IMG/VR virus record: IMGVR_UViG_3300035181_003098
Location: 1 to 35,854 of that record
DNA: 35,854 nt
Reading direction: 5' to 3' (one strand)
DNA from: a virus
The translations under genes were made by a program, and so were the position numbers. Shown in pieces: positions 12,734 to 27,795 of the stretch; positions within the stretch are counted from its first letter, which is position 1, and each line of letters starts with the position of its first letter. The notes beneath the pieces are model-generated. The model was not told where the DNA came from. It was given only the letters and a program-made list of their open reading frames with translations, and did not search any database.

Positions 12734-12740
12734 AAAAATA

Positions 12741-15548
12741 ATGACAGTTAAAACTGAAATGATGGAAGATGCCATTAGAGAAATTAAAAAAAACCTAAAA
12801 GGTTATCTTGATCATGAAGGAGTTGAATCTCAAAATAATCGGTATTTATGTATTAATCCTGATCATGATGATACTCATCCTTCTGCTACAATTTTTACTG
12901 ATGATAATGGTGGACAACATTTAAAGTGTTGGTCGTGTTTGCCAGGACATGAAAATGTCCTGACTAATTTTGGATATAAAGAAATTTCTAAAATAGACAT
13001 TGGTGAAACTGTATTAGATTTAAATGGAAATTTTTCAAAAGTTACAAATAAAATCGAAACAAAAAATAAAGAATGTGATATATATAAAATTTCAACTTTT
13101 TCATATAATCATGGAATAGAAGTTACTGACGATCATAGAGTCTTTTGTCTTGACGATCTTACTTGTGATAAAAGTAAAACTAATTTTTTTTGTAATAAGG
13201 ATCAATGTTCATATTTTTTGAAAAAAAGATGTAATCCAAAAAAAATAAATTTAGAGATAAAAGTAGTTGAAGCTAAAGATTTAACCTTAAATCATATGCT
13301 TCTTACTCCTATTTATTCTCCTAAAAAAGAATATAATTTTGTTTTTCATGATAAAAATACTGTTTTTAGTTTTGAAGAGGACATGTATTGGCTTTTTGGT
13401 TTATACCTAGCAGAAGGAAGTACTTATGGTAAAAGAGTTGTTGAATTTTCACTTCATAAAAAAGAAATAGATTTTACTCATAAGATAATAGAAATATCAA
13501 AAAAATATTTTAATGCAAATTGTTCAATTAAGAAAAAAGACTCTTCAAATGGAATTGCTATCAGAGTTCACTCTTCCATTTTTTTTAGACTTATTTCAAG
13601 TATTTTTAGTGGAGTATGTGATACTAAAAGTATTCCTTTTGATTTTGTTGATTTGAATTTCAATAATAAAAAATCCTTTATTCAAGGTATTTTTGATGGT
13701 GATGCTTGTAAGGCAAGTGGATGTTTAACTCTTACTAATTCAAATATAGTAAAATATTGTCATGATGCATTATTAACATTTGAAATTATTTCTTCATATT
13801 CTGAAAATGACTCTTATATTTCTATGGATGGTATTGAAAGAAAAAAAACATATTCTATTAATCCTATAGGTATAAATATTTTTGATTTTTTTAAAACTGG
13901 GATTGTAAATTACACTTATACAAATCACAAATCTTTTTTTGTCACTATTTCTGGAGTAAGATATTTAGCTTCTGGAATATCTAATATTGATATTTCCAAA
14001 AATAAATATTCTTCTGTTTTTGATATAACAGTAGATGGCTCCAAATCATTTGTAACAAAAGGGTTTGTAGTTCATAACTGTAGCGCGACTTATGATGTTT
14101 TTGCTGCTGCTCATATTTTGTCTAATAAACCTGTATCTGGAACTGGATTCTTTACGGAAACAGTTCCTTATCTTGCTGAAATGTTTGGTGTTACCATACC
14201 AGAATATTCAATAACAGACAGAGAAAGAGATGAAATTATGTTGTATAGACTTTATCGTGATGCAGCTAATTATATAATTTCTTATTCTGAAGATGCTATT
14301 CCAGATAATGTGATGCATGAGCTTGTTAAGAGGAATTGGCTTGACATAAAAAAGATTAAGAATCTTGGTGTTGGATATGTTGTATCCTATGATCATTTTA
14401 GGTCCCATTTAAGGTCTATGGGGCATACAGTCAAAAGTATTGAAGAATCTGGTTTATCTGATCCATATCTTTTTAATGAACGTAGACTGATATTTACATA
14501 TAATGATGAACATGGTAGACCTGTTGGATTCATTGGGCGTAATTTGGATTATGACGGAATTAAAGATCCTGAAACACATCAGTATCATAAAGGTCCAAAA
14601 TATGTTTTTAATAAGACTCCTTCTATAGGAATTAAGCTTCTTAAAAAGGAGCAACGTTTATACCTGTTTGACAAGGCAAGAAAGAGTGAGGCTCCAACCT
14701 TATTTATAGTTGAAGGTCAACCTGATAGTATTTCTTTCCATTATAGTGGACATGACAACTTTGTTTCTTTGTCTGGAACATCTATGACATTAGAGCATTT
14801 TGAACTTCTAAGGCGTTATGGAATTTATGATGTAGTCATATGCCTAGATAATGATTCACCAGGACAGAAGGCTGCAGAATCTCTTATTGATACCATCTTG
14901 AAACACGTTAATGATATACGTGTAAGGTTTATGTTTTTGCCAATGGTTAATGGTGAAAAAATAGATCCAGATCTTATGGCTAGAGATGGTAGATCTAGTG
15001 AGTTTTTTGATTTACCTAAAGTTTCTCCTTTTGACTTTACATTAACTAAAATAGTAACAGAATTTGAAGATTCTGATCCTGAATTTATTTGTAATAAAGT
15101 TCTTCCAATTATTGTATCTGACCCTTCTTCAATAAGAAGGGAAACAATGGTTTCTATGTTGTCATCTGTAACAGGAATAAGTGAAAGAGCTTTAAAGGAT
15201 GAATTAAAAAGACTTTTAGAAAATAAAGATCAAAAAGTAATAAAACTTAAGAAGGATATTGTTGATCGTCTTTCTCATAAAATTGGCAATACTGACTCTA
15301 CTAATGAGGTTGAAGCATTACTTTCTGAAACTCTTGAAAGTTTTAGACAGATTGATAAGGAGGCTTCTTCTGAAACTCTTGAGCCAAAAACATTGCTTGG
15401 TAATCTTCTTGAAATAAAAAGATATGAAGAAGGAGATGCTTTAATTGACTATATTAAAGTTGATCCTAATCTTGAAATATTCATGAAGACAATTGAGGGA
15501 GACCTTAGTCAGAAAATGATCCTAATTCCAGCGCAACCCAATGTAGGT
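12741..15548 (+). CDS. Primase-helicase (DnaG-DnaB fusion), exon 1 with intein
   Basis: This exon encodes 936 residues including a 381-residue intein. The extein begins with a CHC2-type zinc finger (Cys37, His42, Cys63 and, after protein splicing, the +1 Cys). It continues with the TOPRIM domain (TLFIVEGQPDS with its Glu and VVICLDNDSPG with DxD). A linker then leads to the start of a RecA-type helicase domain, ending inside Walker A (AQPNVG). The reading frame continues 28 codons into the intron and stops at 15632. Joined to 16006-16848 the extein is about 836 residues. The protein would lay primers and unwind DNA at the phage fork with the DnaE-type polymerase. The start ATG 12741 follows GGAG by 12 nt; ATG 12759 is an alternative. 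Confidence 0.88.
12936..14078 (+). mobile_element. Intein in the primase zinc finger, with LAGLIDADG domain
   Basis: This 381-residue intein starts at Cys (CLPGHENVLTNFGYKEI, block A) and has block B as VTDDHRVFC (TxxH-like). Two LAGLIDADG motifs are visible, LFGLYLAEGS and IQGIFDGDA. It ends SFVTKGFVVHN followed by Cys+1 (block F/G). Excision joins CWS to CSATYDVF and restores the zinc finger's second CxxC. All splicing residues (Cys1, block-B His, His-Asn, Cys+1) are present, so it should be active, and the endonuclease looks intact. Confidence 0.92.
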
Positions 15549-16005
15549 GGTTGCTTTTTATGTATAATTCTATTTGATATTGTGTTTTGCCGGTATCAAA
15601 TTATTTCTATACATAATATAAAAAGGCAATAACTGCCCACTCATAAAGTAACTTATGAGTGCACACTCCGACTAATTGCGGGAATACCTTATAGCTTCAA
15701 ATACTACTTATAGATGGTGACATACTATAATACCGTTAGAGTAATAATTCATAACGGCATAGTGAAAATTTTGAAGATTGGTAAATCGGCGCAGCAAAGC
15801 TTCTTTATAAGAAGTGAGTTCAACGACTAGTAAATCCTATATTGTGCAGTAGGTCTAGAGCCAAGTGGTGCCAGTAGGCTTAAATCGAAACGTTGGAGGC
15901 CCTATCAGCTTGTCTGAGGGTTGATATATAGTCTGGTCTATATGGAAACATATAGTCGCGCATAAAGGCGCACAGAATGATTAACGAACCTTCTGGAACA
16001 TAACG
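15549..16005 (+). mobile_element. Group I intron 1 (primase-helicase), no endonuclease
   Basis: This is a 457-nt intron without a gene. Core elements in order are P (AATTGCGGGAA, about 15675), Q (AATCGGCGCAGC, about 15785), R (GTTCAACGACTA, about 15820) and S (GATATAGTCTG, about 15926). They are followed by a P9 hairpin with GAAA tetraloop (CTATATG/CATATAG). The 5' splice site is placed after T15548 and the 3' site after G16005. This joins GGT to AAA ACT and rebuilds Walker A as NVGKTT. A 5' site after T15551 (NVGGKTT) is possible. P1 pairing is weak (AGGT with GCTT). Confidence 0.87.
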
Positions 16006-16848
16006 AAAACTACTTTATTTGTAAATCTCATTCACTCAATTATTAAAAACAATCCAGATTATGTAGTTGGATTTTTATCTATTGATGATTCATTGAAGGA
16101 ACTAGTGCCTCGTTTTATTTGTTACAATGTAATAGACCGTAATGGAATTAATTCTGATGCAGGTCTTACTTATACTATAAATCATTTTTCTACTCCTGTT
16201 CTTTATAAGGATTATCCTTTTTATTCGCATATGATGAATGAAAGGAATATAGCCTTTAGAGAAATAGGTGGATGGGTAAATGAAGGGCGATTAATTCTTT
16301 TAGATAGTGAGAATGGAAGAAGTTTTGATTTTCTTGCTTCTAGTATTAGAAACATAAGAGATAAACATCCATCAAAAAAAGTTTTATTCTTTTTAGATAA
16401 TCTTCATTTACTTACAAGTGAATCATGGTCTGAATCTGGATATGATAGAATTAAAAAATTATCACATGAAGTTAAGGCTTTATGCGTAAATGCTAATGCT
16501 ACCATAATCTCTACTGTAGAACTTAGAAAGTTAGTAAAAGGTCAAAAGGCTGACAATAATGATTTAGCAGGGAGTGCAAGTCTTGCTTATGATGCTAATG
16601 CTATTGCTATTCTTTCTTCTGAATTAGATATGGATCCAGATTCAAGCAAATACTTTAGACACGGGACTTCTACAAGGAAATACCCAATTATTGAATGCAA
16701 TATTAGTAAAAATAAAATTGCTTCATTTAAGGGTCTTTTGTATAGCAAACTTTATGCGTCTCAAGCATATTATCAATTCATTTCAGAGTTGGAATTTAAT
16801 TCACTTTATGGCGATACAGAAGCTGAAGAGTACGCAAAAAGTGTTTAG
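16006..16848 (+). CDS. Primase-helicase, exon 2 (RecA-type helicase domain)
   Basis: This exon encodes 280 residues. It begins KTTLFVNLIHSII, completing the Walker A lysine and threonine cut off in exon 1. Next come GFLSIDDSLKEL (H1a-like) and a Walker B strand VLFFLDNLHLL. Then STVELRK and a Gly/Ser-containing loop (DLAGSASLAYDANAIAIL) resemble the H3/H4 region of DnaB-family helicases. Read alone, the first in-frame start is at 16093, which would lack the P-loop; the exon therefore only makes sense after splicing. A 25-nt gap with AGGAT separates it from the next gene. Confidence 0.88.
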   Translation, partial: KTTLFVNLIHSIIKNNPDYVVGFLSIDDSLKELVPRFICYNVIDRNGINSDAGLTYTINHFSTPVLYKDYPFYSHMMNERNIAFREIGGWVNEGRLILLDSENGRSFDFLASSIRNIRDKHPSKKVLFFLDNLHLLTSESWSESGYDRIKKLSHEVKALCVNANATIISTVELRKLVKGQKADNNDLAGSASLAYDANAIAILSSELDMDPDSSKYFRHGTSTRKYPIIECNISKNKIASFKGLLYSKLYASQAYYQFISELEFNSLYGDTEAEEYAKSV

Positions 16849-16873
16849 TAAATCTATTTATAGGATATAGAAA

Positions 16874-17626
16874 ATGTCAAATATTCGTTTTGGTTCTTAT
16901 GTTTTTGTCGGTTCAGATGAAAACAAGAATCTTTATTTTAAAGACTATCGCCATGGACAAGAGCTTGCTCCAGATAATCTTCTTCCAGATTTTTTTCTTG
17001 AACTTGGTTCAATCAAAGAAGATTTGAGCTATAATGCTACTATAATTGGTGAGACAGAAGAAGTATCATCAATTGTTACTTCAAAAGTTGAAGAGACAAT
17101 TAATGGATTTTTTAGGCGTGCTATTAAAACGCAAATTTCAAATATCAAAGATTCATCAATTAAAACTACTTATCCAAAAAATGGCTTGGCATATATTGAT
17201 AAGCCTATTTTTTATCATTATGAGTCAACCGACACTGAAAATAAAAATCGTGGTGGAATGACATTTGCAATTCTTTACTCTGAAGAGATTAAGTCTTTTA
17301 TTGTAGGTGTTTCATTTTGTAGTAAAAAAGATGTTTATTTCAAAAAAATTGGAAATGAAATTGCATGGAATAATCTGAAAAATCATGCAATTATTATTAG
17401 TACCACTAATATCGAAGAGAAGTTCTTAGGTAATAGGCTTAAGTTCAGAGGAGCTCTTGGTTTAAAGAGTACTATTTCTGATCCAATTGCTTTTATTCGT
17501 AGTATAAATACGGGACTTTTAATTGATGTTATTTCAGAATCTTCTGAAGGACTTTTAGACGTTGATGAAAATGTTCTGAGAAAGATTTGTCGTTTGAATT
17601 ACTTCCCACGTGGAAATAGATATTAA
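16874..17626 (+). CDS. Hypothetical protein
   Basis: This 250-residue protein starts at ATG behind ATAGGA. Mixed alpha/beta, with a hydrophilic N-terminal half and a later strand-rich region (GGMTFAILYS, SFIVGVSF). I recognise no family. It lies between primase-helicase and polymerase genes and its stop abuts the next start (TAAATG), so a replication-related role is possible by context only. Confidence 0.7.
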   Translation: MSNIRFGSYVFVGSDENKNLYFKDYRHGQELAPDNLLPDFFLELGSIKEDLSYNATIIGETEEVSSIVTSKVEETINGFFRRAIKTQISNIKDSSIKTTYPKNGLAYIDKPIFYHYESTDTENKNRGGMTFAILYSEEIKSFIVGVSFCSKKDVYFKKIGNEIAWNNLKNHAIIISTTNIEEKFLGNRLKFRGALGLKSTISDPIAFIRSINTGLLIDVISESSEGLLDVDENVLRKICRLNYFPRGNRY

Positions 17627-17938
17627 ATGACAAGGATCGTCAATATTCATCATAAAAAATCTTATGATCTTTATATCGGTCGACCAAGAAAAGGAATGGG
17701 TTACAATAAATTTGCTAACCCATTCCCAATCAACGATAGTATTGGGGAGACCCGTGAAGTGGTTATAGAAAAACATCGAAAGTATTTATGGCAACAAATT
17801 AAATCTGGAGAGGTATCAAAAGAAGAATTGCTTGCTATGGAAAGCAAAACTCTTGGATGTTTTTGTAATTATCCTGAACAAAATTGTCATGGGTCAAATT
17901 TTATCAAAGCAATTGAATGGCTAAAAAAAGGAGGATAG
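17627..17938 (+). CDS. DUF4326 family protein
   Basis: This 103-residue protein matches the DUF4326 pattern: an N-terminal VNIHH strand, YDLYIGRPRKGMGYNKFANP, a helix RKYLWQQIKSG, and the Cys/His signature LGCFCNYPEQNCHGSNF near residues 80-95. The family is common in phages and often lies near nucleotide or ADP-ribose genes; its activity is not established to my knowledge. It starts directly at the upstream stop and ends 4 nt before the polymerase start, whose ribosome binding site (GGAGG) lies in its last codons. Confidence 0.8.
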   Translation: MTRIVNIHHKKSYDLYIGRPRKGMGYNKFANPFPINDSIGETREVVIEKHRKYLWQQIKSGEVSKEELLAMESKTLGCFCNYPEQNCHGSNFIKAIEWLKKGG

Positions 17939-17942
17939 TGAG

Positions 17943-19679
17943 GTGGATACTTATACTCCCCTGCACGTTCATTCTATTTATTCCCAACTTGATGGGTTTA
18001 GTAAAATTGAAGATATTGTAGACCGAGCTATTGAAACTGGTGCACATGGTGTATGTATTACTGATCATGCATATGCTACCTCTCATTATCAACTTGGTGA
18101 AATTTGTGTCAAAAAAAATATTAAACCAATTTTCGCAGTAGAAGGATATTTATCTCCTAGAGATAATACTATCCATGAAAAAATTGATGGTTTCAAAGAT
18201 TATTATCATATAACTCTTATTGCTAAAAATCCTATAGGGTATTCAAACTTAATGAAGCTTATTGCCGATAGTTTCTTACTAGGGAAGTATCGTAAGCCTC
18301 GTTTTGATATGAATAAGCTAGAGCAGTGGTCTAATGGAATTATCTGTCTTACGGCTTGTCTCGGTGGAGTGGTATCACAGATGCTTGCAAATAATAGAGA
18401 TGAAGAGGCTGAAACATGGATGTCTAATCTTAAAGATATTTATGGCGAAAATGTTTTTGCTGAATTAACCTGGACAGGGTTAGAAGAGCAAGACAAGGTT
18501 AATATAAAAATGATAGCTTTAGCTGAAAAGCTAAATGTAAAAATTGTTATAACTCCAGATAGTCATTATTCTAAAGCTTCAGATTCTGATTTTCATAAAG
18601 CAATGGTGTGTATTAATGTTGGGCAGTCTTTTGTTCCTACTGGCAAAGAAAAAGATGGAGATGATGTTGATGAATCTGGAATGTTCTATCAGCCAGAACA
18701 ATACTGGATCAAAGACAGGCAAACCTTGATCGATCAGTACTATCATAAATTTGAAAATCATAATGAATATTTTGAGAATACAAATGATATTGCTGATTCT
18801 ATAGAATGGATAAAGTTTAATAAAGAAAAGAAATTTCCATGTGATTATTCTAATCCAGATGAAGAGCTAATGAATAGAATTATTATTTCTTTAAATGAAA
18901 AAATTGAATCTGGAATTCTTAATTCTGAGCATATTGATATTTATACTTCAAGATTAAAAGAAGAGCTTGATACAATTATTAAAATGGGTTTTTCTGATTA
19001 CTTTATTGAGATTCAAAATATTGTTAAGTGGGCCAATGATGCTGGAATAACAACAGGGCCTGGACGTGGATGTTTTTATAATAGTACTCCTATTCTTTGC
19101 AGGGATAAATATCGCCTAATTAAAGATATTAAACCTGGAATGGAAGTTTATACTTCACAGCATAAGTATGAAAAAGTAATTGCTCTTTTATCTTATGAAG
19201 TGGAAGAAAGTCTTACTTGTATTGAATATAAAAGTTTTGACAATATTTTCTATAGAATATTTGGAACTACTGATCATAAACACTTAGTGGTTCCTAAATC
19301 CACTACTCCAGTCAAAGACTTTTCATCTGATAGAAATGAAATTGCTCCAATTGAAAGTGTTCCATTTTTTCTTGAATCATCACTTATTAGTGAATCATCA
19401 CATTGTCTTGTTGGTAGTAATTTTAATAGACAGGATCCTAAATTTGAAAAAATTTATATTTCTACTGTTTATGAAACACCAATTATTAAGACTAAGGTTT
19501 ATGATTTAATGGTAGAAGGAAATAATACTTTTATGGTAGGAAATCATTTTGTACATAATTCTGGAGCTGGAAGTTTTATTAATTTTGTTTTGGATATTAC
19601 CCGTGTAAACCCATTAACTTACGGATTGCTATTTTCTCGTATGTTAAATAGTGGTCGTAGTGCTTTTCCTGTTATTGAT
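17943..19679 (+). CDS. dnaE: DNA polymerase III alpha subunit (DnaE type), exon 1
   Basis: This exon encodes 579 residues, 163 of them intein. The GTG start lies 8 nt behind GGAGG. The PHP domain is clear: PLHVHS (His8, His10) and ITDHAYA (Asp41, His42), and further HxH/DSHYS metal ligands at about 200. The palm begins after residue 370 with GPGRG...SGAGS (interrupted by the intein). VNPLTYGLLFSRMLN follows, then PVID. The frame stops five codons past the proposed splice site. The Asp at 19677-19679 joined to VDLDFN of exon 2 gives DVDLDF, the catalytic DxDxDF motif. No 3'-5' exonuclease domain is inserted, so this is DnaE rather than PolC. It is the replicative polymerase of the phage. Confidence 0.9.
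19071..19559 (+). mobile_element. Mini-intein in DnaE (GPGRG/SGAGS site)
   Basis: This 163-residue intein starts at Cys (CFYNSTPILCRDKYRLIKD), with block B GTTDHKHLVV and end NNTFMVGNHFVHN before Ser+1. Excision joins GPGRG to SGAGS, the universal polymerase III palm loop. No endonuclease domain is present, so it can splice but not home by itself. Confidence 0.93.
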
Positions 19680-19700
19680 GATATTTTGGAATAATTATTT

Positions 19701-20420
19701 ATGTTAAATAGAACTGAAAAATATACTCATGAATTCAATTTGAATAATGAGGATATTATAATTGAATTGTTTGTTGAAAAAAATGAAGCTGGTAATGTTA
19801 TTTCCTGGAATTTTTTTATTAATAATATAGAAGAAATGAGTCTTGATAGCGTGAGAGAATATGAAAATGCATTTATCTCACTTCTACTTAATATTTTTCC
19901 AGCTTTACTGTCTAAAAGTGAAAATATTGAATGGCTTACTGTTGGAGGTGCGGATTATCAACTTCAAAAATATCAATGTATTGGTAGAAATAACAACAAT
20001 CTAATTGTTGATCCTTTGTGCGGTAAATTAAAATACCTTTTTGGCATTATTGATCCTGAAGTAGCAAAGCTTAACATATGTAATGAAATTCCATTAAAAT
20101 TTTCAGATTATTTTACTCAATATTTTCCAAATGGTCCTTCTAGAATTTTTGATATATCTGTTATTGATGTATCTGATTATGATGGATTTTCTGGATTTGA
20201 TTCTCCGAAAGAAGCTTATACTGAAGATTTTTATAAACAAATTTGTTCAATAACTAAAATTGGTGGATATATTATAGCCTATGAAGGTACACCTGATACT
20301 TTATCTCAGTTGTCCAATGAAGTGTCTCCTCTTGTCCATATTGATGGATTAAAACTAATTAAAAGGGTCTCTTGTGGTTATGGCTATGGCTTTATGAGTT
20401 CATGGGAAGTCATATCATGA
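19701..20420 (+). CDS. Spermidine synthase-like (polyamine aminopropyltransferase fold)
   Basis: This 239-residue protein has a class I methyltransferase-like layout typical of spermidine synthases. It begins with a beta-rich N-terminal part (1-70), then IEWLTVGGADYQLQKY (76-91, the GGGDG-type loop) and NLIVDP (100-105, acidic end of strand 2). DISVIDVSDYDGF (151-163, equivalent to the catalytic VDxxDP segment), EDFYKQICSITKIGGYIIA and an EGTP loop follow. Key glycines are fewer than in canonical SpeE, so the substrate is uncertain. It has only a weak ribosome binding site (GGAATAATT) and lies 22 nt past the dnaE exon 1 end. It overlaps the next gene by 4 nt. Confidence 0.55.
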   Translation: MLNRTEKYTHEFNLNNEDIIIELFVEKNEAGNVISWNFFINNIEEMSLDSVREYENAFISLLLNIFPALLSKSENIEWLTVGGADYQLQKYQCIGRNNNNLIVDPLCGKLKYLFGIIDPEVAKLNICNEIPLKFSDYFTQYFPNGPSRIFDISVIDVSDYDGFSGFDSPKEAYTEDFYKQICSITKIGGYIIAYEGTPDTLSQLSNEVSPLVHIDGLKLIKRVSCGYGYGFMSSWEVIS

Positions 20421-20698
20421 TAAAAATTGAGGATATTACTCCGGCTAAAAGTAGACTGAGACTTTTAGTTGATAGTCTTTCAGATAACCCTTTCTATATT
20501 AACAATCGCTCTTCTATATATGATGAGTTAGGTATTATTGAGATTCATAATCTTGATGAACAATTGATTTTAATCAAAGAGTCTGGGCTTATTAAGAATA
20601 CTAATAATGGTAATTCATATGTTTCTTATCTTCTTGGAGTGACTACGGTTGCTCCAAGTGGACCACTTGTAAAAAAAGGTGGTTCATTGCCGGATTAA
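20417..20698 (+). CDS. Hypothetical small protein
   Basis: This 93-residue protein starts at an ATG overlapping the previous stop (ATGA) behind GGGAAG. It begins MIKIEDITPAKSRLRLLVDS; a helix follows and the last 20 residues are Gly/Pro/Ser-rich and probably flexible. I recognise no family. It is apparently cotranslated with the spermidine-synthase-like protein, which suggests a shared role. It shows none of the residues of S-adenosylmethionine decarboxylase. Confidence 0.6.
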   Translation: MIKIEDITPAKSRLRLLVDSLSDNPFYINNRSSIYDELGIIEIHNLDEQLILIKESGLIKNTNNGNSYVSYLLGVTTVAPSGPLVKKGGSLPD

Positions 20699-20702
20699 TT
20701 GA

Positions 20703-20733
20703 TTGACAAAATATTTTAAAGTGTAAGTATACT
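20703..20733 (+). promoter_or_regulatory. Possible sigma70-type promoter before HEG
   Basis: TTGACA at 20703-20708 and TATACT at 20728-20733 are separated by 19 bp, longer than the usual 17. It lies 35 nt before the TTG start of the LAGLIDADG gene, with AGGAGG in between, so that gene may be transcribed on its own. Confidence 0.35.
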
Positions 20734-20767
20734 AATGGAAGGAATATAACCATAGGAGGACTTTACT

Positions 20768-21553
20768 TTGAATGAAATAATTTTAGAACAATATGATAAT
20801 GGCTTATCTATCTCTGAGATAGCCAGAGCTAATAATACTACAAACTATTTGGTTAGAAAATTTTTGACTAGCAATAGTAGAGAAATAAGGACTAATGCTT
20901 TTAATTCAAGACGTTATAATCTTGATGATAGTAAATTTAATGCAATAGACACAGAAGAAAAGGCGTATTGGCTTGGATTCTTATATGCCGATGGGTGTGT
21001 TCATGATTCAAGCAATGATATTTCTTTATCTTTATCTGTTGTTGATATCGGTCATTTGGAAAAATTTAGAATTTTTCTTAGTACAGATAGACCAATTAGG
21101 ACTTATTCTAAAAAGGTTGGAGCCGATTACTCGAAATTAATTGCTACATCTTCTCAGATGAAAAGTGCTTTGATTTCGTTAGGTTGTGGTATTAATAAAA
21201 CTACTATTTTAACTTTTCCAGAAATTAGGGAAGATCTTATCTTTCATTTTATTCGTGGATACTTTGATGGTGATGGAAGTATAACTTACGTCTCAACTCA
21301 AAATGAATATAAGTTTAGAATATGTGGAACTTATGAATTTTTATCATCAGTAAAAAATATACTAAATATTAATAATCCATTGCGCCAACGTTGGCCTGAT
21401 AGAGAAATTAATAATTGGGAGATTGATATTGGTGGTAATATTCAGGTTTATAAAAAGTTAAAATTATTATATGAAAATTCTACTATTTATTTAGATAGAA
21501 AGTTCGAGAGATTTTGTCAGTTACGGTCCCTTCATATTGAAAGATATGAATGA
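20768..21553 (+). CDS. LAGLIDADG homing endonuclease (intron 2)
   Basis: This 261-residue protein starts at TTG behind AGGAGG. The N-terminus is a helix-turn-helix (LSISEIARANNTTNYLVRKF, 13-32). Two LAGLIDADG motifs follow: YWLGFLYADG (about 68-77) and IRGYFDGDGS (about 159-168). The single chain therefore carries both catalytic Asp residues. Its likely job is to cut intron-less dnaE near the catalytic-Asp codons and so spread intron 2. It lies upstream of the ribozyme core, unlike the endonucleases of introns 3 and 4, which lie downstream. Confidence 0.88.
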   Translation: MNEIILEQYDNGLSISEIARANNTTNYLVRKFLTSNSREIRTNAFNSRRYNLDDSKFNAIDTEEKAYWLGFLYADGCVHDSSNDISLSLSVVDIGHLEKFRIFLSTDRPIRTYSKKVGADYSKLIATSSQMKSALISLGCGINKTTILTFPEIREDLIFHFIRGYFDGDGSITYVSTQNEYKFRICGTYEFLSSVKNILNINNPLRQRWPDREINNWEIDIGGNIQVYKKLKLLYENSTIYLDRKFERFCQLRSLHIERYE

Positions 21554-21811
21554 TAACCCTGTGAATTCAGTGGATAACTCTACGGAGTCAATACTGAGCC
21601 AAGCCTATGTAAATAATCATAGGAAGGTGCAACGACTATTGCTATGGTGGCAGTAGATCTCAAGAGAGATCGAAGCGCAGGGGGCCTTGTGGTTCGTTTT
21701 AGAACTATGTGGCTATGATATAGTCTGGTCTGTATGGCGACATGCAGCAGTTAAAGTGTTAGGCATTACATTTTAGCGGGGAAAGGTTTTCGTCCTTTCT
21801 TGAACAAAACG
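21554..21811 (+). ncRNA. Group I ribozyme core of intron 2
   Basis: The core elements are AATTCAGTGG (P), ACTC-TACG-GAGT (P5 hairpin), AATACTGAGCCAAGCC (Q; CAGT/ACTG make P4), GTGCAACGACTAT (R) and GATATAGTCTGG (S; P7 pairs CGACTA with TAGTC). A P9 hairpin with GCGA tetraloop (CTGTATG/CATGCAG) and a last hairpin GAAAGG/CCTTTC precede terminal G21811. The Q element is of the GAGCCAAGCC kind and differs from the other four introns here, so this ribozyme has a separate origin. Confidence 0.85.
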
Positions 21812-23212
21812 GTAGATTTAGATTTCAATGCTAAACGTCGTGATGAAGTTTTTGCTCATCTTTATGATAAATACAAAAATGGATTTGCACACATTGGTAC
21901 TCATGGAACTTTGCAGGCCAAGAATGCTTTTAAAGATGTATGTCGCATTTTTAATGTTCCATTTCAAGAAGCCAACACTTTGTCTTCTTTAATTCCTGAT
22001 GGGTCTGAAAGTATTGAAGACGCTCTTAAGGATGAAAAGTTTAGTTCTAAAATAAATGCAGATGAAAATCTCAAAGATGTAGTGAGATATTCTAAAGCTT
22101 TGGAAGGAACTATAAAAAGTTATGGTTGTCATGCATGTTTAAAATATGATCAAAAGATATTTGCAAATGGTAAATTCATTAGTCTTGAAAAAGCTTATGA
22201 TAAATACTATAAAAATACAGATAAAAAAGATCCTATTAAAGTAAGAACTATTAATGGTGATAAGTTTGGTTTAATTCATCAAAGTGGTAGAAAAAATTCT
22301 TACAATGTATATCTATATGCAGAAGATGAGAGGACTATCATTAGTGAAGTTGAACTTAGTTCTGAACATAAAATTCTTATTGACGGAAGGTATATTCCCT
22401 ATAGGGATTTAAGAGAGAATACTTATTATGAACATAATATTTCAAATACTGTTCCAAATTCTATTACTGGATATTTTATTTCTGGTTTCTTGCTTCCTTT
22501 GCTTTCTAATAATATTATTGCTGGTTCATGTGATTGGGTTATTAGTAGTGAAACCATTAATCTTATCTTTGATTCACTTGAAGCGTTTTATGTTGGTGGA
22601 CACTCAGAGTTCAAAGAAGAATGGAAAAAAAATATAAATAATCCAAAAAAGATTTTAAGTAAAATAGAATCAATATTGGGAATAACTAATTGTAATGGAG
22701 TTATACTTCAGGCAATAAATTATAATGATATTTTATTTTCAGAAATCTTAGAGCGTACTGATTTTTTTTCTGGCTTAATTTCTTCTTCTAGGAAAATTTC
22801 AAGCTATTCTTATGGTCACAAAAATGTAGTTTCAAGTTCTATTGCAAAACAATTTAATTTTGAATTTAAAAAATTTGGAATGACTTTTAAATCATCTTCT
22901 TTAGAATTTAGTTCTGCTGATTTAATAAGATTTTTAACATATAATGATTGTATTCTATTTTTTATTGATCTTCCAAAAACATATATTTTTAAGGGATCAA
23001 AAACAGAGCAGAATGCTGTTAGGATGTATGATGTTCAAATTTTAACAGATAATCCAGATAATCAAAATTTTATTTGTAGTGGTATTTCTGTTTCCAACTG
23101 TGGAGTTCTATTATCTCCAGTTCCACTTAATGAAACAATTCCTCTGTTTGCAGTTAATGGATTGCCTACGACAATGTATGATGGCGAAACGTGCGAGAAA
23201 TTAAAATTCATT
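21812..23212 (+). CDS. dnaE: DNA polymerase III alpha subunit, exon 2 with intein
   Basis: This exon encodes 467 residues, 321 of them intein. It starts VDLDFNAKRRDEVFAHLYDKY, completing the catalytic acidic motif and matching DnaE (xDxDFxxxxRDEV). It continues GFAHIGTHGTLQAKNAFKDV and, around the intein, ALEGTIKSYGCHA joined to CGVLLSPVPL (DnaE xxxHAxGVVIxP). It ends TTMYDGETCEKLKFI at T23212, with an in-frame TAA directly after. The TTG at 21800 is inside the intron's terminal hairpin and is not a real start. Confidence 0.9.
22136..23098 (+). mobile_element. Intein in DnaE (HA/CGV site), endonuclease degenerate or absent
   Basis: This 321-residue intein starts CLKYDQKIFANGKFISLEKA, has block B VELSSEHKILID and ends with VRMYDVQILT, then NFICSGISVSN before Cys+1. 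The C-terminus is Ser-Asn rather than His-Asn, which several functional inteins share. About 150 residues between blocks B and F have the size of an endonuclease domain, but no LAGLIDADG or HNH motif is readable (TGYFISGFLLPLLSN is a possible eroded copy). Confidence 0.88.
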
Positions 23213-23521
23213 TAAATTTGGATGAAGTAAAATCGGGAAAATTGCGGGAACCCCCTTAGAGTTCTAACTACTACTTGTAAGTGGAAACATATTACAAAAC
23301 CTTGACCGTAATTGTGGTAAAAAGGCATAGTGAAAATGTTAGAAATTGGGAAATCGGCGCAGCTAGTCTTCTAAATCTATTTATATAGACATGAAGAGTG
23401 TTCAACGAGTAGGTGAGTTACACCAGCTTACATGTAGTAATATGTGTAGGTGCCCCCGACATGAGTTGTATAACAACTCTAAAGATGTACTCTGAACTGT
23501 GAAGAAATTTACAGAAAAAGG

Positions 23522-23551
23522 TTGAAATGCCTTTTCTTTTATCTCTATAAT
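23522..23551 (+). promoter_or_regulatory. Possible sigma70-type promoter inside intron 3
   Basis: TTGAAA at 23522-23527 and TATAAT at 23546-23551 with an 18-bp spacer lie about 50 nt before the ATG of the intron endonuclease. They would allow its expression apart from the polymerase transcript. Confidence 0.45.
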
Positions 23552-23603
23552 AGACCTATAGATTCAAATTTAATATTAAACAAGATTCGGTAGGAGTTAT
23601 AGA

Positions 23604-24509
23604 ATGCCTAAAGAAAATTTACTTAACACTTCCTCTTATGATGAAGTAAAACAATTAATTATAGAAAATTGGCCAATTACAAGTGTTGTATTTTGCAAAA
23701 AGTATAAAACTAGTCACAATTATTTAACCCGTATTTCCTCTGGAAAAACATGGAATCAAATAGTTGTTGACTGTTCTCTTACACCAAATATTCAAACATC
23801 TTCTATTTACAATGAAGAGGACATATTAAAAGACATAAAAAGAATTCATGATATTTATGGTTCTGTAGGTAGTACCACTTATAGAAAACTTGGTATGTTT
23901 TCTCAAAAAACTATTGAAGATAAGTATGGTTCTTATTCTAATGCTCTTATTCAAGCTGGATTTAGATCAAGGATGATTTCAAGAGATATGTCTAATGCGG
24001 ATATGATTGAAGAAGGCAAAATAATAGTAGAAAAATATGATAGGATTGATTCAAAAATTATTACAGAAAGATGTAATTTTTCTGTTCCTACTATAATTTC
24101 TAGATTTGGTTCTTGCTCAAATTTTTATAATGAAATTGGTTATGTAAATAATCACCGAAACTCAAATGAAGGACTGGATGTTTTGTCTATTATTTCTGAA
24201 ATTTTAAATTCAGAATGTATTAAAGAAAAAACATTCAATGATTTAGTTGGTATTGGTGGTAAAAAACTTTATTATGATGGGTTTTTTGAATCCCACAACT
24301 TACTTGTAGAGTACAATGGTATTCAGCATTATACTTTTATAAGCAAGTATCATAGTGATAAAATTTCATTAGCACATCAAGTTGCTAATGATAATTTAAA
24401 AATGGCTTATGCTATCAATAGTGGCTTTAATTTTATTGCTATTCCTTATGGGTGCAATGATTTTGATTCAATTAGGTATATTATTGATAGCATGATAAAT
24501 GTAACATAG
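23604..24509 (+). CDS. PD-(D/E)XK-like homing endonuclease (intron 3)
   Basis: This 301-residue protein starts at ATG behind TAGGAG. The N-terminal 190 residues are DNA-binding repeats of the homing-endonuclease-associated kind. FSQKTIEDKYGSYSNALIQA and FSVPTIISRFGSCSNFYNEI are two clear copies of the (K/R)FGSxxxAxxxxG motif. The C-terminal domain (about 205-301) has YYDGFFESHNLLVEYNGIQH, giving Asp and Glu. HQVANDNLKMAYAINSGFNF, with the conserved Asp/Lys helix, and a final strand FIAIPYG follow, as in EDxHD/Vsr-like endonucleases. The core resembles the protein at 7528-8082. Its stop codon is 3 nt before the intron end. Confidence 0.75.
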   Translation: MPKENLLNTSSYDEVKQLIIENWPITSVVFCKKYKTSHNYLTRISSGKTWNQIVVDCSLTPNIQTSSIYNEEDILKDIKRIHDIYGSVGSTTYRKLGMFSQKTIEDKYGSYSNALIQAGFRSRMISRDMSNADMIEEGKIIVEKYDRIDSKIITERCNFSVPTIISRFGSCSNFYNEIGYVNNHRNSNEGLDVLSIISEILNSECIKEKTFNDLVGIGGKKLYYDGFFESHNLLVEYNGIQHYTFISKYHSDKISLAHQVANDNLKMAYAINSGFNFIAIPYGCNDFDSIRYIIDSMINVT

Positions 24510-24512
24510 TTG

Positions 24513-24672
24513 AAAGTTGATTTACTGGGAGTGAAAATACTGGCGATTATTGATGAAACATTAAAGTTTATCAATGGTAATAATCGTTACCAGAAAATTG
24601 GCTCAGTTTACGAACTCCCTTTAGATGATGAAAGAACATATGCAATGCTGGCAACAGGAGACGTTTTAGGGT
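24513..24672 (+). CDS. dnaE: DNA polymerase III alpha subunit, exon 3
   Basis: This exon encodes 53 codons plus one base: KVDLLGVKILAIIDETLKFI and, at the end, LPLDDERTYAMLATGDVLG. It matches the DnaE finger segment KFDFLGLxTL...PLDDxxTxxMLxxGDTLGVFQLE up to the Gly before FQLE. The last base T24672 combines with CG of exon 4 to a Ser codon. Read alone it looks like a small gene starting TTG at 24510 and ending at 24698, but that would be an artefact of the two flanking introns. Confidence 0.88.
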
Positions 24673-25682
24673 TAACAGAACGGCCCTTTTCTACTTAATT
24701 GCGGGAAACCCCTGAGAGACAAAAGTACCAACCTGTAGTAGTAATATATATAGGGGCAAGCAGTAATGTGCTTGGTATGGTAAAAACCTTTTGTATTGGG
24801 CAATCCGCAGCGAAGATTCCTAATTAAGGAATAACGTTCAACGACTAGTAAATCCTATATTGTATTTTATATAGGTTTAGAGCCAAAGTTAATGTGGTGA
24901 CAGTAGTCTTAAATCGAAATAGTAGAACTTATTTATTTGATAAATGAGAAGATATAGTCTAAACTATAAGGAAACTTATAGGAGATTATACTTTGAACTA
25001 TCAGGAAATTTATAGAAAATTAATTGCTAAAAGACAAGAATATGTTTTATCGGAAAATTATGAAAAACATCATATTATTCCTAAGACTATTGGTGGAGAT
25101 GATTCAAGAAGTAATCTTGTTAAACTCACTCCAAGAGAACATTATATTGCACATCTTTTACTTACAAAGATTTATCCTAAAGAAGATGGCCTTAAAATTG
25201 CTTGGCAGTTAATGGCTTGTACTCGTGATAATTTTAATAAAGTAAAATTTAGCAGTAAAATGTATGAAAGACTAAAATTTGAAGTTCGTAAAGCTCACAA
25301 TTTCTTTATGATTGGTACAACTAAAAATAAGTGTGAATGGAGAATGCGTTCCGCCTTGAAGGCTAAAGAACGCACTGGAGAAAAACATAATCTTTGGGGG
25401 TTCAAACATTCTGAAGAATCTAAACTTAAAATGTCTAGATCTAGAAGAATGGGCGATAACAACAAGGCTAAAAAATGTGAACTTGAAATTTTTAATTTAA
25501 ATACTATTTTTGAATGTTCATGCTTAAAGGAGTCTTGGATTTTGTTAAAATCTGAAAAGATATTTGATAAATCATATGATTATTTTAAGTCGTCTTTTAG
25601 AGAAAATAATTTAAAAAAATATTCTGATTTGTTTATTGTAAATCTCATATAGAATTTACGGTTCTATATAAATGTAATTTTG
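24673..25682 (+). mobile_element. Group I intron 4 in dnaE
   Basis: This is a 1010-nt intron. P1 pairs exon AGGGT with GCCCT (about 24683) over a short loop. Core elements are P (AATTGCGGGAA, about 24698), Q (AATCCGCAGCG, about 24801), R (GTTCAACGACTA, about 24836) and S (GATATAGTCTA, about 24950). P9 is CTATAAG-GAAA-CTTATAG (24964-24981). The HNH gene lies 3' of the core. Splicing after T24672 and G25682 gives GDVLGSFQLEGG. Confidence 0.9.
24993..25652 (+). CDS. HNH homing endonuclease with NUMOD3 (intron 4)
   Basis: This 219-residue protein starts at TTG behind AGGAG. Residues 25-50 carry the HNH motif (EKHHIIPKTIGGDDSRSN, then LVKLTPREHYIAH). The middle has a NUMOD3-type DNA-binding stretch around GFKHSEESKLKMSRSRR (about 138-154). 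The C-terminal part resembles the binding helices of SegB/I-TevI-like enzymes. The ribosome binding site overlaps the 3' arm of the intron's P9 hairpin by two bases, so folding of the intron RNA may limit its translation. Confidence 0.88.
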   Translation: MNYQEIYRKLIAKRQEYVLSENYEKHHIIPKTIGGDDSRSNLVKLTPREHYIAHLLLTKIYPKEDGLKIAWQLMACTRDNFNKVKFSSKMYERLKFEVRKAHNFFMIGTTKNKCEWRMRSALKAKERTGEKHNLWGFKHSEESKLKMSRSRRMGDNNKAKKCELEIFNLNTIFECSCLKESWILLKSEKIFDKSYDYFKSSFRENNLKKYSDLFIVNLI

Positions 25683-25777
25683 CGTTTCAACTAGAAGGAG
25701 GTTCTATCGCTCCTTATGTTCCTCAATGCAAACCAAAGAGCATTGATGATATTGCTGCAATTTTAGCCACAATCCGT
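25683..25777 (+). CDS. dnaE: DNA polymerase III alpha subunit, exon 4
   Basis: This is a 95-nt exon, too short to stand out by itself. It completes Ser and continues FQLEGGSIAPYVPQCKPKSI, then DDIAAILATIR. This corresponds to DnaE GVFQLESxGM...xxxxPxxFEDIIALxALYR. The frame meets TAA at 25778, the first intron bases. The 5' junction is G25682 and the 3' junction T25777. Confidence 0.88.
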
Positions 25778-26271
25778 TAATTATAGGGCGGACTCATATA
25801 GTAATATATGATGAATAAACACATTAAACTGACGGGAATGAACCTTATTCTATTTTCTACCAAGCTACCATAGTAATATGATAGTGGCTGAATTAATTAC
25901 TCAGGTATGGTAAAAAAGAAAATAGTTGGTCGATCCGCATCAAAATCTCCTACCGTTATAGATTTTGTAGTGATACAAATTAAAGGAGAGATGTTCAGAG
26001 ACTATAATATGTGGGTCCATTATTTTAAAATGGATCATGGTATAGTCCACTAGTATTTGACTTTATTATTTCAAGTTTATCTTGTAATATACTTAAGTCA
26101 TCTGAAAATTTATGAATAATAAGATTTATTCCATACAGATTTTGGATGTTATTATTATTTCATGATTATGCATTTTTAGAATTGTGTTTTTCACTCTTCT
26201 TTTGATAGCATTTTGAGTTTTCTCCTTGATTTTGTGTGATTTGAGGAATTTACTATAATTCACACTCAGTG
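25778..26271 (+). mobile_element. Group I intron 5 in dnaE, no intact endonuclease
   Basis: This is a 494-nt intron. P1 pairs exon TCCGT with GCGGA (about 25789). Core elements are P (AAACTGACGGGAA, about 25827), Q (GATCCGCATC, about 25934), R (GTTCAGAGACTA, about 25992) and S (TATAGTCC, about 26041). About 220 nt of AT-rich sequence without a + strand gene follow the core. The 3' splice site is placed after G26271 (giving ATIR-SRDYLPGPL); G26277 (ATIR-DYLPGPL) is an alternative. Confidence 0.85.
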
Positions 26272-27795
26272 TCAAGGGACTATTTGCCTGGTCCTCTTCA
26301 GCTTGGGATGGACAAACTTTTAATTAATGCAATGTCAAATGGTGAGCATTTTGAATTTGATTTTCCTAAGTATAATTATATTTTTAAAGATACCTATGGA
26401 CTGTTCCTTTATCAGGAACAACTTATGCAGCTTGCTGGGTCCATGTGTAACTTTGATCCCATAAAACAAGACGTATTAAGAAAAGCAACTGCCAAAAAAG
26501 ATGAATCTTTATTGAATTCTCTTAAAGAGGATTTTATAAATGGTGCTATCTTAAATGGAGAAAATAAGCAAAAATTAGAAGAATTCTGGGAAAAAATGCT
26601 TGGATTTTCGAGGTATTCATTTAATAAAAGTCACTCTGTGGCTTATGCTTATCTTTCTTATTACTCTGCTTATTTTAAGGCTAATTACCCTACTGAATTT
26701 TGTTGTGCTTGTATTAGTTGTGAAACTGATCCAGAGGCACAATCAGTATATGTTAATGATGCAAAAAGACGTGGCATAGAAATAATCCCTCCAGATATAA
26801 ATTTTAGTGAAATGGATTTTTCAATTTTTAATGGAAAAATTGTTTATGGCTTTAAGGGTCTAAAAGGGATTGGTGAAAAAGCAATAGTTCAAATTATTGA
26901 AAATAAACCATATACTGATGCTACTCACTTTCTTCGTGTTGTAGCAGAAAAAAAGCTTAAAATTCCTAAACAAGTATTGGAAGCATTAATTCGTATTGGA
27001 GCTTTTGATAGTTTTGGGGTTAATAGAAGATTGATGCTTGATAGTTATGACAAGTTTCTTGTTGACTATAAAGGTTATCTTAAAAAGCCTTTAATAGACC
27101 TTCCAATGAAATATAATGATGATACATGTACCTTTAAAGGGGATGTTGATGGATTAACTCTATTTGACATTTTAACTTATGAAAAAAGATATATGGGCGT
27201 TTATATTTCTGGCAATCCTTTTGACTTTGCAAAAAATGTTATAGGTAGTAGTACCTTTACTTTTGAAGAGGCAAAAAGACAGTCTACTGCTTCAGTATTT
27301 TGTGAAATTATGAGTGTGAAGATAACAAAGACAAAATCTAAAGGTGAGAAAATGGGTATCTATAAATGCATAGATAGCTCAAATAACATTTTTGAGTTTC
27401 CTTTGTTCCCTGACTCCTATGCTAAATATGGGGAAAGCATTGAAGAAGGGAATTTCATAGTTGTTAATTTTAAAAACAATGGGTCTCGTGGGTTGGTGTG
27501 TTTGTCGGTGAAGAATGTGAATTCTCTTATTGATGAATATACAAAAACACTTAAATCTGAAAATGCGATAAATTCTATCGCTATTAAGGTTGATAGTCTG
27601 GCAGGACTAAGGAAGTTCTTTACAAGAAAAGGGAAAGAGACTGTTACTGATTTAGAATTCTTGCGCCCATGTCATGTATTCTTTACTGCTGGTTCATATA
27701 CATTTGGGATAGGAACTATTCCATATAGCTCTTCTAATGATTCTATTAGGTTATTAAATCAAATAGAAGAGATAGAGATTAAAATTAATCGTTAA
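26272..27795 (+). CDS. dnaE: DNA polymerase III alpha subunit, exon 5
   Basis: This exon encodes 507 residues. It begins SRDYLPGPLQLGM, matching DnaE YRPGPLxSGM. Next come TYGLFLYQEQLMQLAGSM and later FSRYSFNKSHSVAYAYLSYY, matching the YGFNKSHSxAYxxxSYxTAYLKxxYPxEF finger motif. A helix-hairpin-helix region (YGFKGLKGIGEKAIVQI) follows. The C-terminal part has EKRYMGVYISGNPFD and an OB-fold (about 350-420, FCEIMSVKITKTKSKGEKMG). The C-terminus is normal in length. Exons 1-5 without inteins total about 1154 residues, against 1160 for E. coli DnaE. An intrinsic terminator follows the stop. Confidence 0.92.
   Translation, partial: SRDYLPGPLQLGMDKLLINAMSNGEHFEFDFPKYNYIFKDTYGLFLYQEQLMQLAGSMCNFDPIKQDVLRKATAKKDESLLNSLKEDFINGAILNGENKQKLEEFWEKMLGFSRYSFNKSHSVAYAYLSYYSAYFKANYPTEFCCACISCETDPEAQSVYVNDAKRRGIEIIPPDINFSEMDFSIFNGKIVYGFKGLKGIGEKAIVQIIENKPYTDATHFLRVVAEKKLKIPKQVLEALIRIGAFDSFGVNRRLMLDSYDKFLVDYKGYLKKPLIDLPMKYNDDTCTFKGDVDGLTLFDILTYEKRYMGVYISGNPFDFAKNVIGSSTFTFEEAKRQSTASVFCEIMSVKITKTKSKGEKMGIYKCIDSSNNIFEFPLFPDSYAKYGESIEEGNFIVVNFKNNGSRGLVCLSVKNVNSLIDEYTKTLKSENAINSIAIKVDSLAGLRKFFTRKGKETVTDLEFLRPCHVFFTAGSYTFGIGTIPYSSSNDSIRLLNQIEEIEIKINR

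What the first reader, a model, noticed from the sequence alone, without database searches (positions are those of the whole stretch)
19680..21811. Ordinary genes trapped between dnaE exon 1 and its intron core
Besides the LAGLIDADG gene, the gap holds a spermidine-synthase-like gene and a 93-residue gene with coupled translation. Group I introns normally carry only homing or maturase genes. Either the intron captured cargo, or the polymerase gene is split and the halves are joined in trans, or exon 1 is made as a separate subunit (its frame ends five codons after the junction).
Basis: partly seen in the sequence, partly recalled or inferred. Interest (0 to 1): 0.75.

Follow-up and report, generated by a model that had tools for sequence, protein, structure and literature searches.

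The report
Phage DNA polymerase split into two genes
The 'trapped' genes are not inside an intron: this phage encodes its bacterial-type DNA polymerase as two separate genes, with an ordinary self-splicing intron only in the second, so that two parts of the polymerase active site appear to lie on different proteins.

Summary
The genes are real, but the reading "cargo between dnaE exon 1 and its intron core" is wrong.

The LAGLIDADG group I intron runs from 20696 to 21811 (1,116 nt) and carries only its endonuclease. Its 5' splice site is at the end of the 93-residue ORF (…GGSLPD|VDLDFNAKRR). P1 there has 4+13 pairs and ranks first against all relatives. The proposed 19679 junction pairs only at chance level. 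About 30 introns at the same dnaE site, in phages and Clostridia, have the same layout.

The "93-residue gene" is therefore the N-terminal exon of a C-terminal half-polymerase. "Exon 1" (17943-19694) is a separate N-terminal half. ORF239, a remotely spermidine-synthase-like gene, lies between the two genes.

Three further phage contigs carry the same split without this intron: L259 (halves 4.7 kb apart), L154 (a free-standing LAGLIDADG gene between) and L331 (about 8.3 kb apart). All N-halves keep GxxRGS and have lost PDxDxD. All C-halves keep DxDxDF/Y and have lost GPGRGS and LLFERF.

It is a gene-in-pieces polymerase of the Pol III alpha family, apparently with its active-site motifs on two chains. 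Assembly of the halves is inferred, not shown.

The parts
17943..19694 (+). dnaE-N: N-terminal half of the polymerase (PHP domain, start of the palm, GPGRGS motif); ends ...NSGRSAFPVIDDILE*
   Evidence: PF02811 8e-35, PF07733, phrog_405; homologous N-half genes L259 2000-3319 (41% id, E=1.7e-92), L154, L331/L341
19071..19559 (+). intein inside GPGRG|S of dnaE-N (C...VVHN|S)
   Evidence: sequence; weak PF14890/PF13403 matches
19701..20420 (+). ORF239, remotely spermidine-synthase-like; lies between the two polymerase genes, starts 6 nt after the dnaE-N stop in the same frame
   Evidence: codon usage as phage genes; hhalign to SpeE profile E=3e-4 over 63-200, control protein E=0.39; no sequence homolog found
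20417..20695 (+). dnaE-C exon 1 (the finder's 93-residue gene): start of the C-terminal half; ...NTNNGNSYVSYLLGVTTVAPSGPLVKKGGSLPD|
   Evidence: PF07733 score rises from 95.0 to 113.5 bits when its tail is joined to exon 2; 36% id, E=7.6e-11 to the N-terminus of the unbroken L259 C-half
20696..21811 (+). group I intron (1,116 nt) with LAGLIDADG gene in the P1 loop
   Evidence: P1 exon/IGS and P1 extension; Rfam Intron_gpI 70.9 bits E=2.9e-18; size and layout as in about 30 relatives
20768..21553 (+). LAGLIDADG homing endonuclease gene, both motifs intact
   Evidence: PF14528, phrog_4645 E=1.4e-56; alignment A2
20692..20712 (+). 5' splice site region: GGAU|UAAUUGAUUGACAAAAU, 5' arms of P1 (20692-20695) and its extension (20700-20712)
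   Evidence: 4/4 and 13/13 pairs with 21526-21529 and 21511-21523
21511..21529 (+). 3' arm of P1 extension and internal guide GUCC; UUAC 21521-21524 can pair with exon 2 GUAG (P10)
21531..21799 (+). P2 to P9.2 of the core: P2 21531-21537/21544-21550, P3 21557-21563/21676-21682, P6 21604-21609/21618-21623, P7 21634-21639/21720-21725, P8 21683-21695/21702-21714, P9 21730-21736/21741-21747
   Evidence: pair check; fold z -5.2 and -5.9
21812..22135 (+). dnaE-C exon 2: VDLDFNAKRRDEV..., carries the catalytic DxD
   Evidence: PF07733
22136..23098 (+). intein in dnaE-C (GCHA|C...VSN|C)
   Evidence: sequence; DnaE extein resumes CGVLLSP
23204..27795 (+). rest of dnaE-C with three more group I introns (starting near 23204, 24628, 25768)
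   Evidence: Rfam 36.5, 72.7 and 26.2 bits; phrog_405 covers successive exons

Best explanation
This phage makes its Pol III alpha-type (C-family) polymerase from two genes. dnaE-N (17943-19694) encodes the PHP domain and the first part of the palm with the GPGRGS motif, and stops just where the PDxDxDF strand should follow. dnaE-C starts at 20417 with a roughly 93-residue presequence, a shortened DnaE-like copy of the overlapping segment without GPGRGS and without LLFERFLNPER. It then continues through PDVDLDF, which carries the catalytic aspartates, to the C-terminus. ORF239 lies between the two genes. The LAGLIDADG group I intron (20696-21811) is an ordinary one at the well-used PD|xDxDF site of dnaE-C; its endonuclease gene lies in the P1 loop. 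Shown here: gene layout, splice-site pairing, the same split in three other phage contigs, and complementary loss of motifs. Inferred: the two polypeptides assemble without a covalent link into one polymerase whose GS and DxD motifs come from different chains; the split arose by fission with overlap, possibly at an endonuclease target site.
For: 5' splice site: P1 plus extension at 20695, -18.4 kcal/mol, best of 19 guides and best of 19 5' ends; the site at 19679 scores -10.9 at rank 4-8. Exact pairs 4/4 and 13/13, with a possible 4-bp P10. Exon ends SLPD|TAA, 73 nt before the LAGLIDADG start, intron 1,116 nt; 26 relatives mostly have PD| with a stop at once or within a few codons, 56-224 nt, and 1,096-1,420 nt. 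ORF93 is DnaE-like: +18.5 bits to PF07733, in-register matches to DnaE. L259: the same protein unbroken (836 aa ORF) and a separate 439-aa N-half 4.7 kb upstream. L154: N-half, free-standing LAGLIDADG gene, C-half. L331: halves about 8.3 kb apart. Motifs are lost in complementary fashion in all four. Presequences W/L259 z=19.3, W/L154 z=5.6. No intron core in 19655-20130 or 20400-20710.
Against: No experiment shows that the halves assemble or that the polymerase is active. Joining 'SAF' of dnaE-N to 'PD' before the intron would restore a DnaE of canonical length, which an unrecognised intervening sequence could do; the stretch 20421-20695 is also more structured than chance (z -3.7). The presequence of L331 is not significantly similar to the others (z 1.3-2.1). 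The N-half of L154 has an in-frame TAG near its start. All four are metagenome contigs. AlphaFold models were too poor to use.
Confidence: 0.83

Rival explanations
1. A second, unrecognised intervening sequence (about 19668-20689, carrying ORF239) separates dnaE exon 1 from a tiny exon encoding PD, so that two adjacent introns are spliced and one polymerase chain is made (SAF|PD|VDLDF).
For: The joined length would fit DnaE exactly. Adjacent dnaE introns with a mini-exon exist in L177, L180, L189, L190 and L102. The stretch 20421-20695 folds better than shuffles, z -3.7.
Against: No Rfam group I or II match there even with lax filters. The stretch is coding in the ORF93 frame and DnaE-like. 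In L259 the homologous presequence is the uninterrupted start of the C-half gene and the N-half is 4.7 kb away.
Confidence: 0.08
2. One 2.1-kb group I intron from 19680 to 21811 carries ORF239 and ORF93 as cargo in its P1 loop.
For: The core is complete and exon 2 starts at 21812. AUUGAU at 19674-19679 can form 6 pairs with GUCAGU at 21516. Exon 1 joined to exon 2 scores well against PF07733, 119.4 bits.
Against: The pairing is at chance level against other guides (rank 4-8 of 19), while 20695 gives 13 + 4 pairs at rank 1. None of about 30 introns at this site carries other genes. ORF93 is polymerase sequence.
Confidence: 0.04
3. The locus is a degenerate or chimeric dnaE: one half is a remnant, or the metagenome contig joins two phages.
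For: Metagenome contig; the overlapping segment is present twice.
Against: Both halves are open, with phage-like codon usage. The same split with the same complementary losses recurs in three diverged contigs. A chimera of two intact genes would carry both motifs twice.
Confidence: 0.05

Closest known systems
Genes-in-pieces ribonucleotide reductase NrdA of Aeromonas phage Aeh1 (mobE insertion), reviewed in PMC2988022
   Same: Essential phage replication enzyme encoded as two polypeptides, with a homing-endonuclease connection; L154 still has a LAGLIDADG gene between its halves.
   Different: Different enzyme. Here the halves overlap, each having lost the part the other keeps, and in two contigs they are kilobases apart with no endonuclease gene at the break.
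Split B-family polymerase 43A/43B of Aeromonas phages 25 and 44RR (PMC2988022)
   Same: A phage replicative polymerase in two genes; for phage 25 the products co-purify and are active.
   Different: B family, not C family; whether that split has overlapping copies was not examined here.
Split DnaE of cyanobacteria joined by a split intein (noted in PMC3919608) and split PolB with split intein of phage MIJ3 (PMC6892783)
   Same: Two genes encode one polymerase; the cyanobacterial case is also a C-family alpha subunit.
   Different: Those halves are joined by protein trans-splicing. No intein fragments are seen at the ends of these halves; the inteins in this window are internal and complete-looking.
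Group I introns with LAGLIDADG endonuclease at the PD|xDxDF codons of dnaE, e.g. Staphylococcus phage RQ1 and Lysinibacillus phage LC76P1
   Same: Same insertion site, same endonuclease family (phrog_4645), endonuclease gene in the P1 loop, same size range.
   Different: None of substance; in this window the host gene is the C-half gene.
Cargo-bearing self-splicing elements: IStrons (PMC3984707), rps3 in a fungal rnl group IA intron (PMC7902536)
   Different: The intron in this window carries only its endonuclease.

Membership tests
Group I intron (RF00028) | conserved core P3-P9 with P7/P3 arrangement | tested here: met
   70.9 bits, gathering score 50; stems checked base by base
Group I intron (RF00028) | U.G pair at the 5' splice site in a P1 formed by exon and internal guide | tested here: met
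   U20695.G21526, GGAU/GUCC, plus 13-bp extension
Group I intron (RF00028) | terminal G and self-splicing activity | tested here: inconclusive
   intron ends ACAAAACG| at 21811; splicing itself not testable here
Cargo-carrying group I intron | non-homing genes between the splice sites | tested here: not met
   splice sites 20695/21812 enclose only the LAGLIDADG gene
Gene-in-pieces enzyme | one ancestral protein encoded by two separate open genes | tested here: met
   window, L259, L154, L331
Gene-in-pieces enzyme | the two polypeptides assemble into active enzyme | not testable with these tools
   needs co-expression and polymerase assay
Fractured gene with split intein | intein N- and C-fragments at the facing ends of the halves | tested here: not met
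   N-halves end within 5-30 residues of the motif and C-halves start with DnaE-like sequence in all four
C-family DNA polymerase (Pol III alpha) | PHP, GS motif, DxD palm, finger and HhH segments in order | tested here: met
   PF02811, PF07733, PF17657, PF14579 and phrog_405 in order over the two genes
Spermidine synthase (PF01564), ORF239 | match to the family profile | tested here: not met
   no match at E<=10; only a remote hhalign resemblance

The most novel reading that the evidence does not exclude
A stable class of phage C-family polymerases has its active site divided between two separately translated polypeptides: the nucleotide-binding GS motif on an N-subunit and the catalytic DxD strand on a C-subunit, whose short presequence replaces the lost overlapping strands. 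It works without intein, RNA splicing or any other covalent joining.
Probability: 0.65. Interest if true: 0.75.

Novelty: new variant of a known kind. Interest (0 to 1): 0.62.

Why it matters
A survey of about 2,000 bacterial genomes mentions as its systematic case of a split alpha subunit only the cyanobacterial one, joined by an intein (PMC3919608). A C-family replicase that assembles its catalytic centre from two chains would be a natural test of how much a polymerase palm can be cut, and gives a ready-made split polymerase for study and tools. It also suggests a route: L154 still has an endonuclease gene between the halves, while L259 and L331 have kept the split with the halves far apart. 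For annotation, it warns that half-length phage DnaE genes need not be intron or assembly artefacts.

Tried and rejected
1. Exon 1 end at 19679 (or 19673) with both genes in the P1 loop. I held this for the first half of the work, because the best duplex for 19668-19695 within the gap lies at the guide. It failed when relatives' guides were used as controls (rank 8 and 10 of 27), and when SLPD|TAA was seen at 20684-20698.
2. The longer dnaE introns L177, L180, L189, L190 and L102 as further cargo cases: they have a second intron at LLFER| and a mini-exon instead.
3. Homologs of ORF239: none by tblastn in phages or plasmids, pattern scans of viral and genome contigs, 33 related records, Pfam, NCBIfam, PHROGs or PDB.
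4. Structure models of ORF239 and of the L259 C-half: pLDDT 39 and 36, not used.
5. Close relatives through RNR, dnaE-N or the DnaE C-terminus as single queries: none. Only the aligned C-terminus found L259.
6. Rfam on the 2.6-kb stretch missed the intron core through its speed filters, although the core scores 70.9 bits when searched alone.

Full report
What is in the window. The window is a whole 35,854-base virus record. Its left-to-right order around the finding is: a DnaE N-terminal gene (17943-19694) with an intein in GPGRG|S; ORF239 (19701-20420); a 93-codon ORF (20417-20698 with stop); a LAGLIDADG gene (20768-21553); a group I core; and DnaE sequence from 21812 onward with another intein and three more group I introns. 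ORF239 and ORF93 have the codon usage of the phage's own genes (0.239 and 0.233 per codon against 0.16-0.31), so they are coding.

The intron family. The LAGLIDADG protein belongs to phrog_4645 (E=1.4e-56). Its relatives sit in the same place in dnaE, between PD and xDxDF, in Staphylococcus phage RQ1, Lysinibacillus phage LC76P1, many IMG/VR contigs and the dnaE genes of Clostridium and related bacteria. In these introns the 5' splice site lies 56-224 nt before the endonuclease gene. The exon 1 frame usually stops at once or within a few codons. The intron is 1.1-1.4 kb long. The exon end and the intron's first bases pair with a stretch at the end of the endonuclease gene: in about half of the 27 introns tested the own pairing ranks first of 27 in both directions. 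So in this family the endonuclease gene lies in the P1 loop, and everything needed for splicing lies at the two ends.

Where the intron of this window begins. I first accepted it, because the best duplex for that region within the gap is at the guide. With relatives as controls, however, the pairing is no better than chance: rank 8 of 27 and 10 of 27, rank 4 and 8 of 19. The 93-codon ORF ends in GGT TCA TTG CCG GAT TAA, that is GSLPD*, exactly the exon end of the relatives (VSLPD|, LPD|TAA) and 73 nt before the endonuclease start. At 20695 the pairing is -18.4 kcal/mol, rank 1 of 19 in both directions and within the best 0.1% of the genome. It consists of GGAU/GUCC (20692-20695 with 21526-21529, U.G at the splice site) and 13 unbroken pairs (20700-20712 with 21511-21523). 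UUAC (21521-21524) can pair with the start of exon 2 as P10. The core scores 70.9 bits as a group I intron and folds far better than shuffles (z -5.2 and -5.9). The intron is therefore 20696-21811, 1,116 nt, with one gene. It is an ordinary member of a large family.

What the '93-residue gene' is. Its end is joined by the intron to VDLDFNAKRR, which restores PDVDLDF. Adding its last 37 residues to exon 2 raises the PF07733 score from 95.0 to 113.5 bits, and the stretch KESGLIKNTNNGNSYVSYLLGVTTVAP lies in register with DnaE of other phages. So it is the start of a C-terminal half-polymerase. The N-terminal gene upstream also covers this stretch, in a complete form with GPGRGSGAGS and LLFSRMLN, and runs out at PVIDDILE*.

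The same split elsewhere. Contig L259 is the nearest relative by the C-terminal half (36% identity, E=1e-92). It has an unbroken 836-residue C-half gene whose first 92 residues match ORF93 (36%, E=7.6e-11) and run straight into PDIDIDF. It has a separate 439-residue N-half gene (41%, E=1.7e-92) 4.7 kb upstream that ends RPQVDCPNYTYEEYSNDKENA. Contig L154 has N-half, then a free-standing LAGLIDADG gene of the same family, then a C-half starting MRIENK...NTNNSWVLYGLGIS...GGGLCDIDVDF; no intron core fits between, because the C-half frame overlaps the end of the endonuclease gene. Contig L331 has the halves about 8.3 kb apart. In all four, N-halves keep GxxRGSxAxS and LLFxRF but have lost PDxDxD; C-halves keep DxDxDF/Y but have lost GPGRGS and the LLFERFLNPER stretch. 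The presequences of the window, L259 and L154 are related beyond chance (z 19.3, 5.6, 3.5); that of L331 is not provably so (z 1.3-2.1). Fifty other loci checked have both motifs in one frame.

Mechanism. The best reading is a two-gene C-family polymerase whose halves assemble after translation. Shown: the gene layout, the splice site by base pairing, recurrence in four contigs and complementary motif loss. Inferred: assembly and activity. From general knowledge of the Pol beta-like palm, both the GS motif and the DxD aspartates are needed for catalysis, so neither half is likely to be active alone. How the split arose is not shown. An endonuclease cutting at the PDxDxD codons is a natural suspect, since the N-half of the window stops within a few codons of that site and L154 still has such a gene between the halves.

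ORF239. It resembles spermidine synthases only remotely (hhalign E=3e-4, probability 39%, co-linear over the nucleotide-binding part; control protein E=0.39). PF01564 does not match. No sequence relative was found. It is not part of the polymerase, and L259, L154 and L331 have other genes in that place.

Comparison with the literature. Split phage enzymes are known: NrdA of Aeh1 and polymerase 43A/43B of Aeromonas phage 25, the latter co-purifying and active (PMC2988022). Split alpha subunits of cyanobacteria are joined by an intein (PMC3919608), as is proposed for PolB of phage MIJ3 (PMC6892783). Most group I introns have a stop codon just after the 5' junction (PMC3073962), and most phage introns surveyed in Bastillevirinae hold one gene or none (PMC11878797); the intron here fits both. 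My literature searches found no split C-family polymerase without intein in phages, but that library is incomplete.

Verdict. The finding as titled is wrong, its third alternative is right, and the split polymerase behind it is more interesting than the intron.

Noticed in passing
window 12699-27795: Very dense mobile elements: primase-helicase gene with a LAGLIDADG intein and a group I intron (15616-15955); the polymerase C-half with four group I introns and an intein; the polymerase N-half with an intein.
   Followed up: partly
[quoted passage not shown] CUUGGAGUGAC-UACG-GUUGCUCCAAG; 20520-20700 folds with z -4.0 although it is coding. Function unexplained.
   Followed up: partly
L177, L180, L189, L190, L102: Two adjacent introns in dnaE, at LLFER| and PD|, with a mini-exon FLNPERVSMPD between; four are in bacterial genome assemblies (Clostridia), L102 in a phage contig.
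   Followed up: partly
L154 4729-5979: N-half polymerase gene with an in-frame TAG in the first PHP motif (LHTH*VCSDFS): stop reassignment, a later start or an error.
   Followed up: no
L259 3319-8000: Between the polymerase halves lie radical-SAM-like genes, one with what looks like a large intein.
   Followed up: no
window 4652-6355 and 725-1114: Reverse transcriptase gene (PF00078, 30.5 bits) and, 3.5 kb upstream, a small gene with two near-identical repeats (AGGINSTVNGSVSEITTAMRSRFQELANVSPTV); possibly a diversity-generating element.
   Followed up: no
window 20703-20733: Promoter-like TTGACA-19-TATACT just before the endonuclease gene, overlapping the P1 extension arm; outside the scan's spacing rule.
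   Followed up: no
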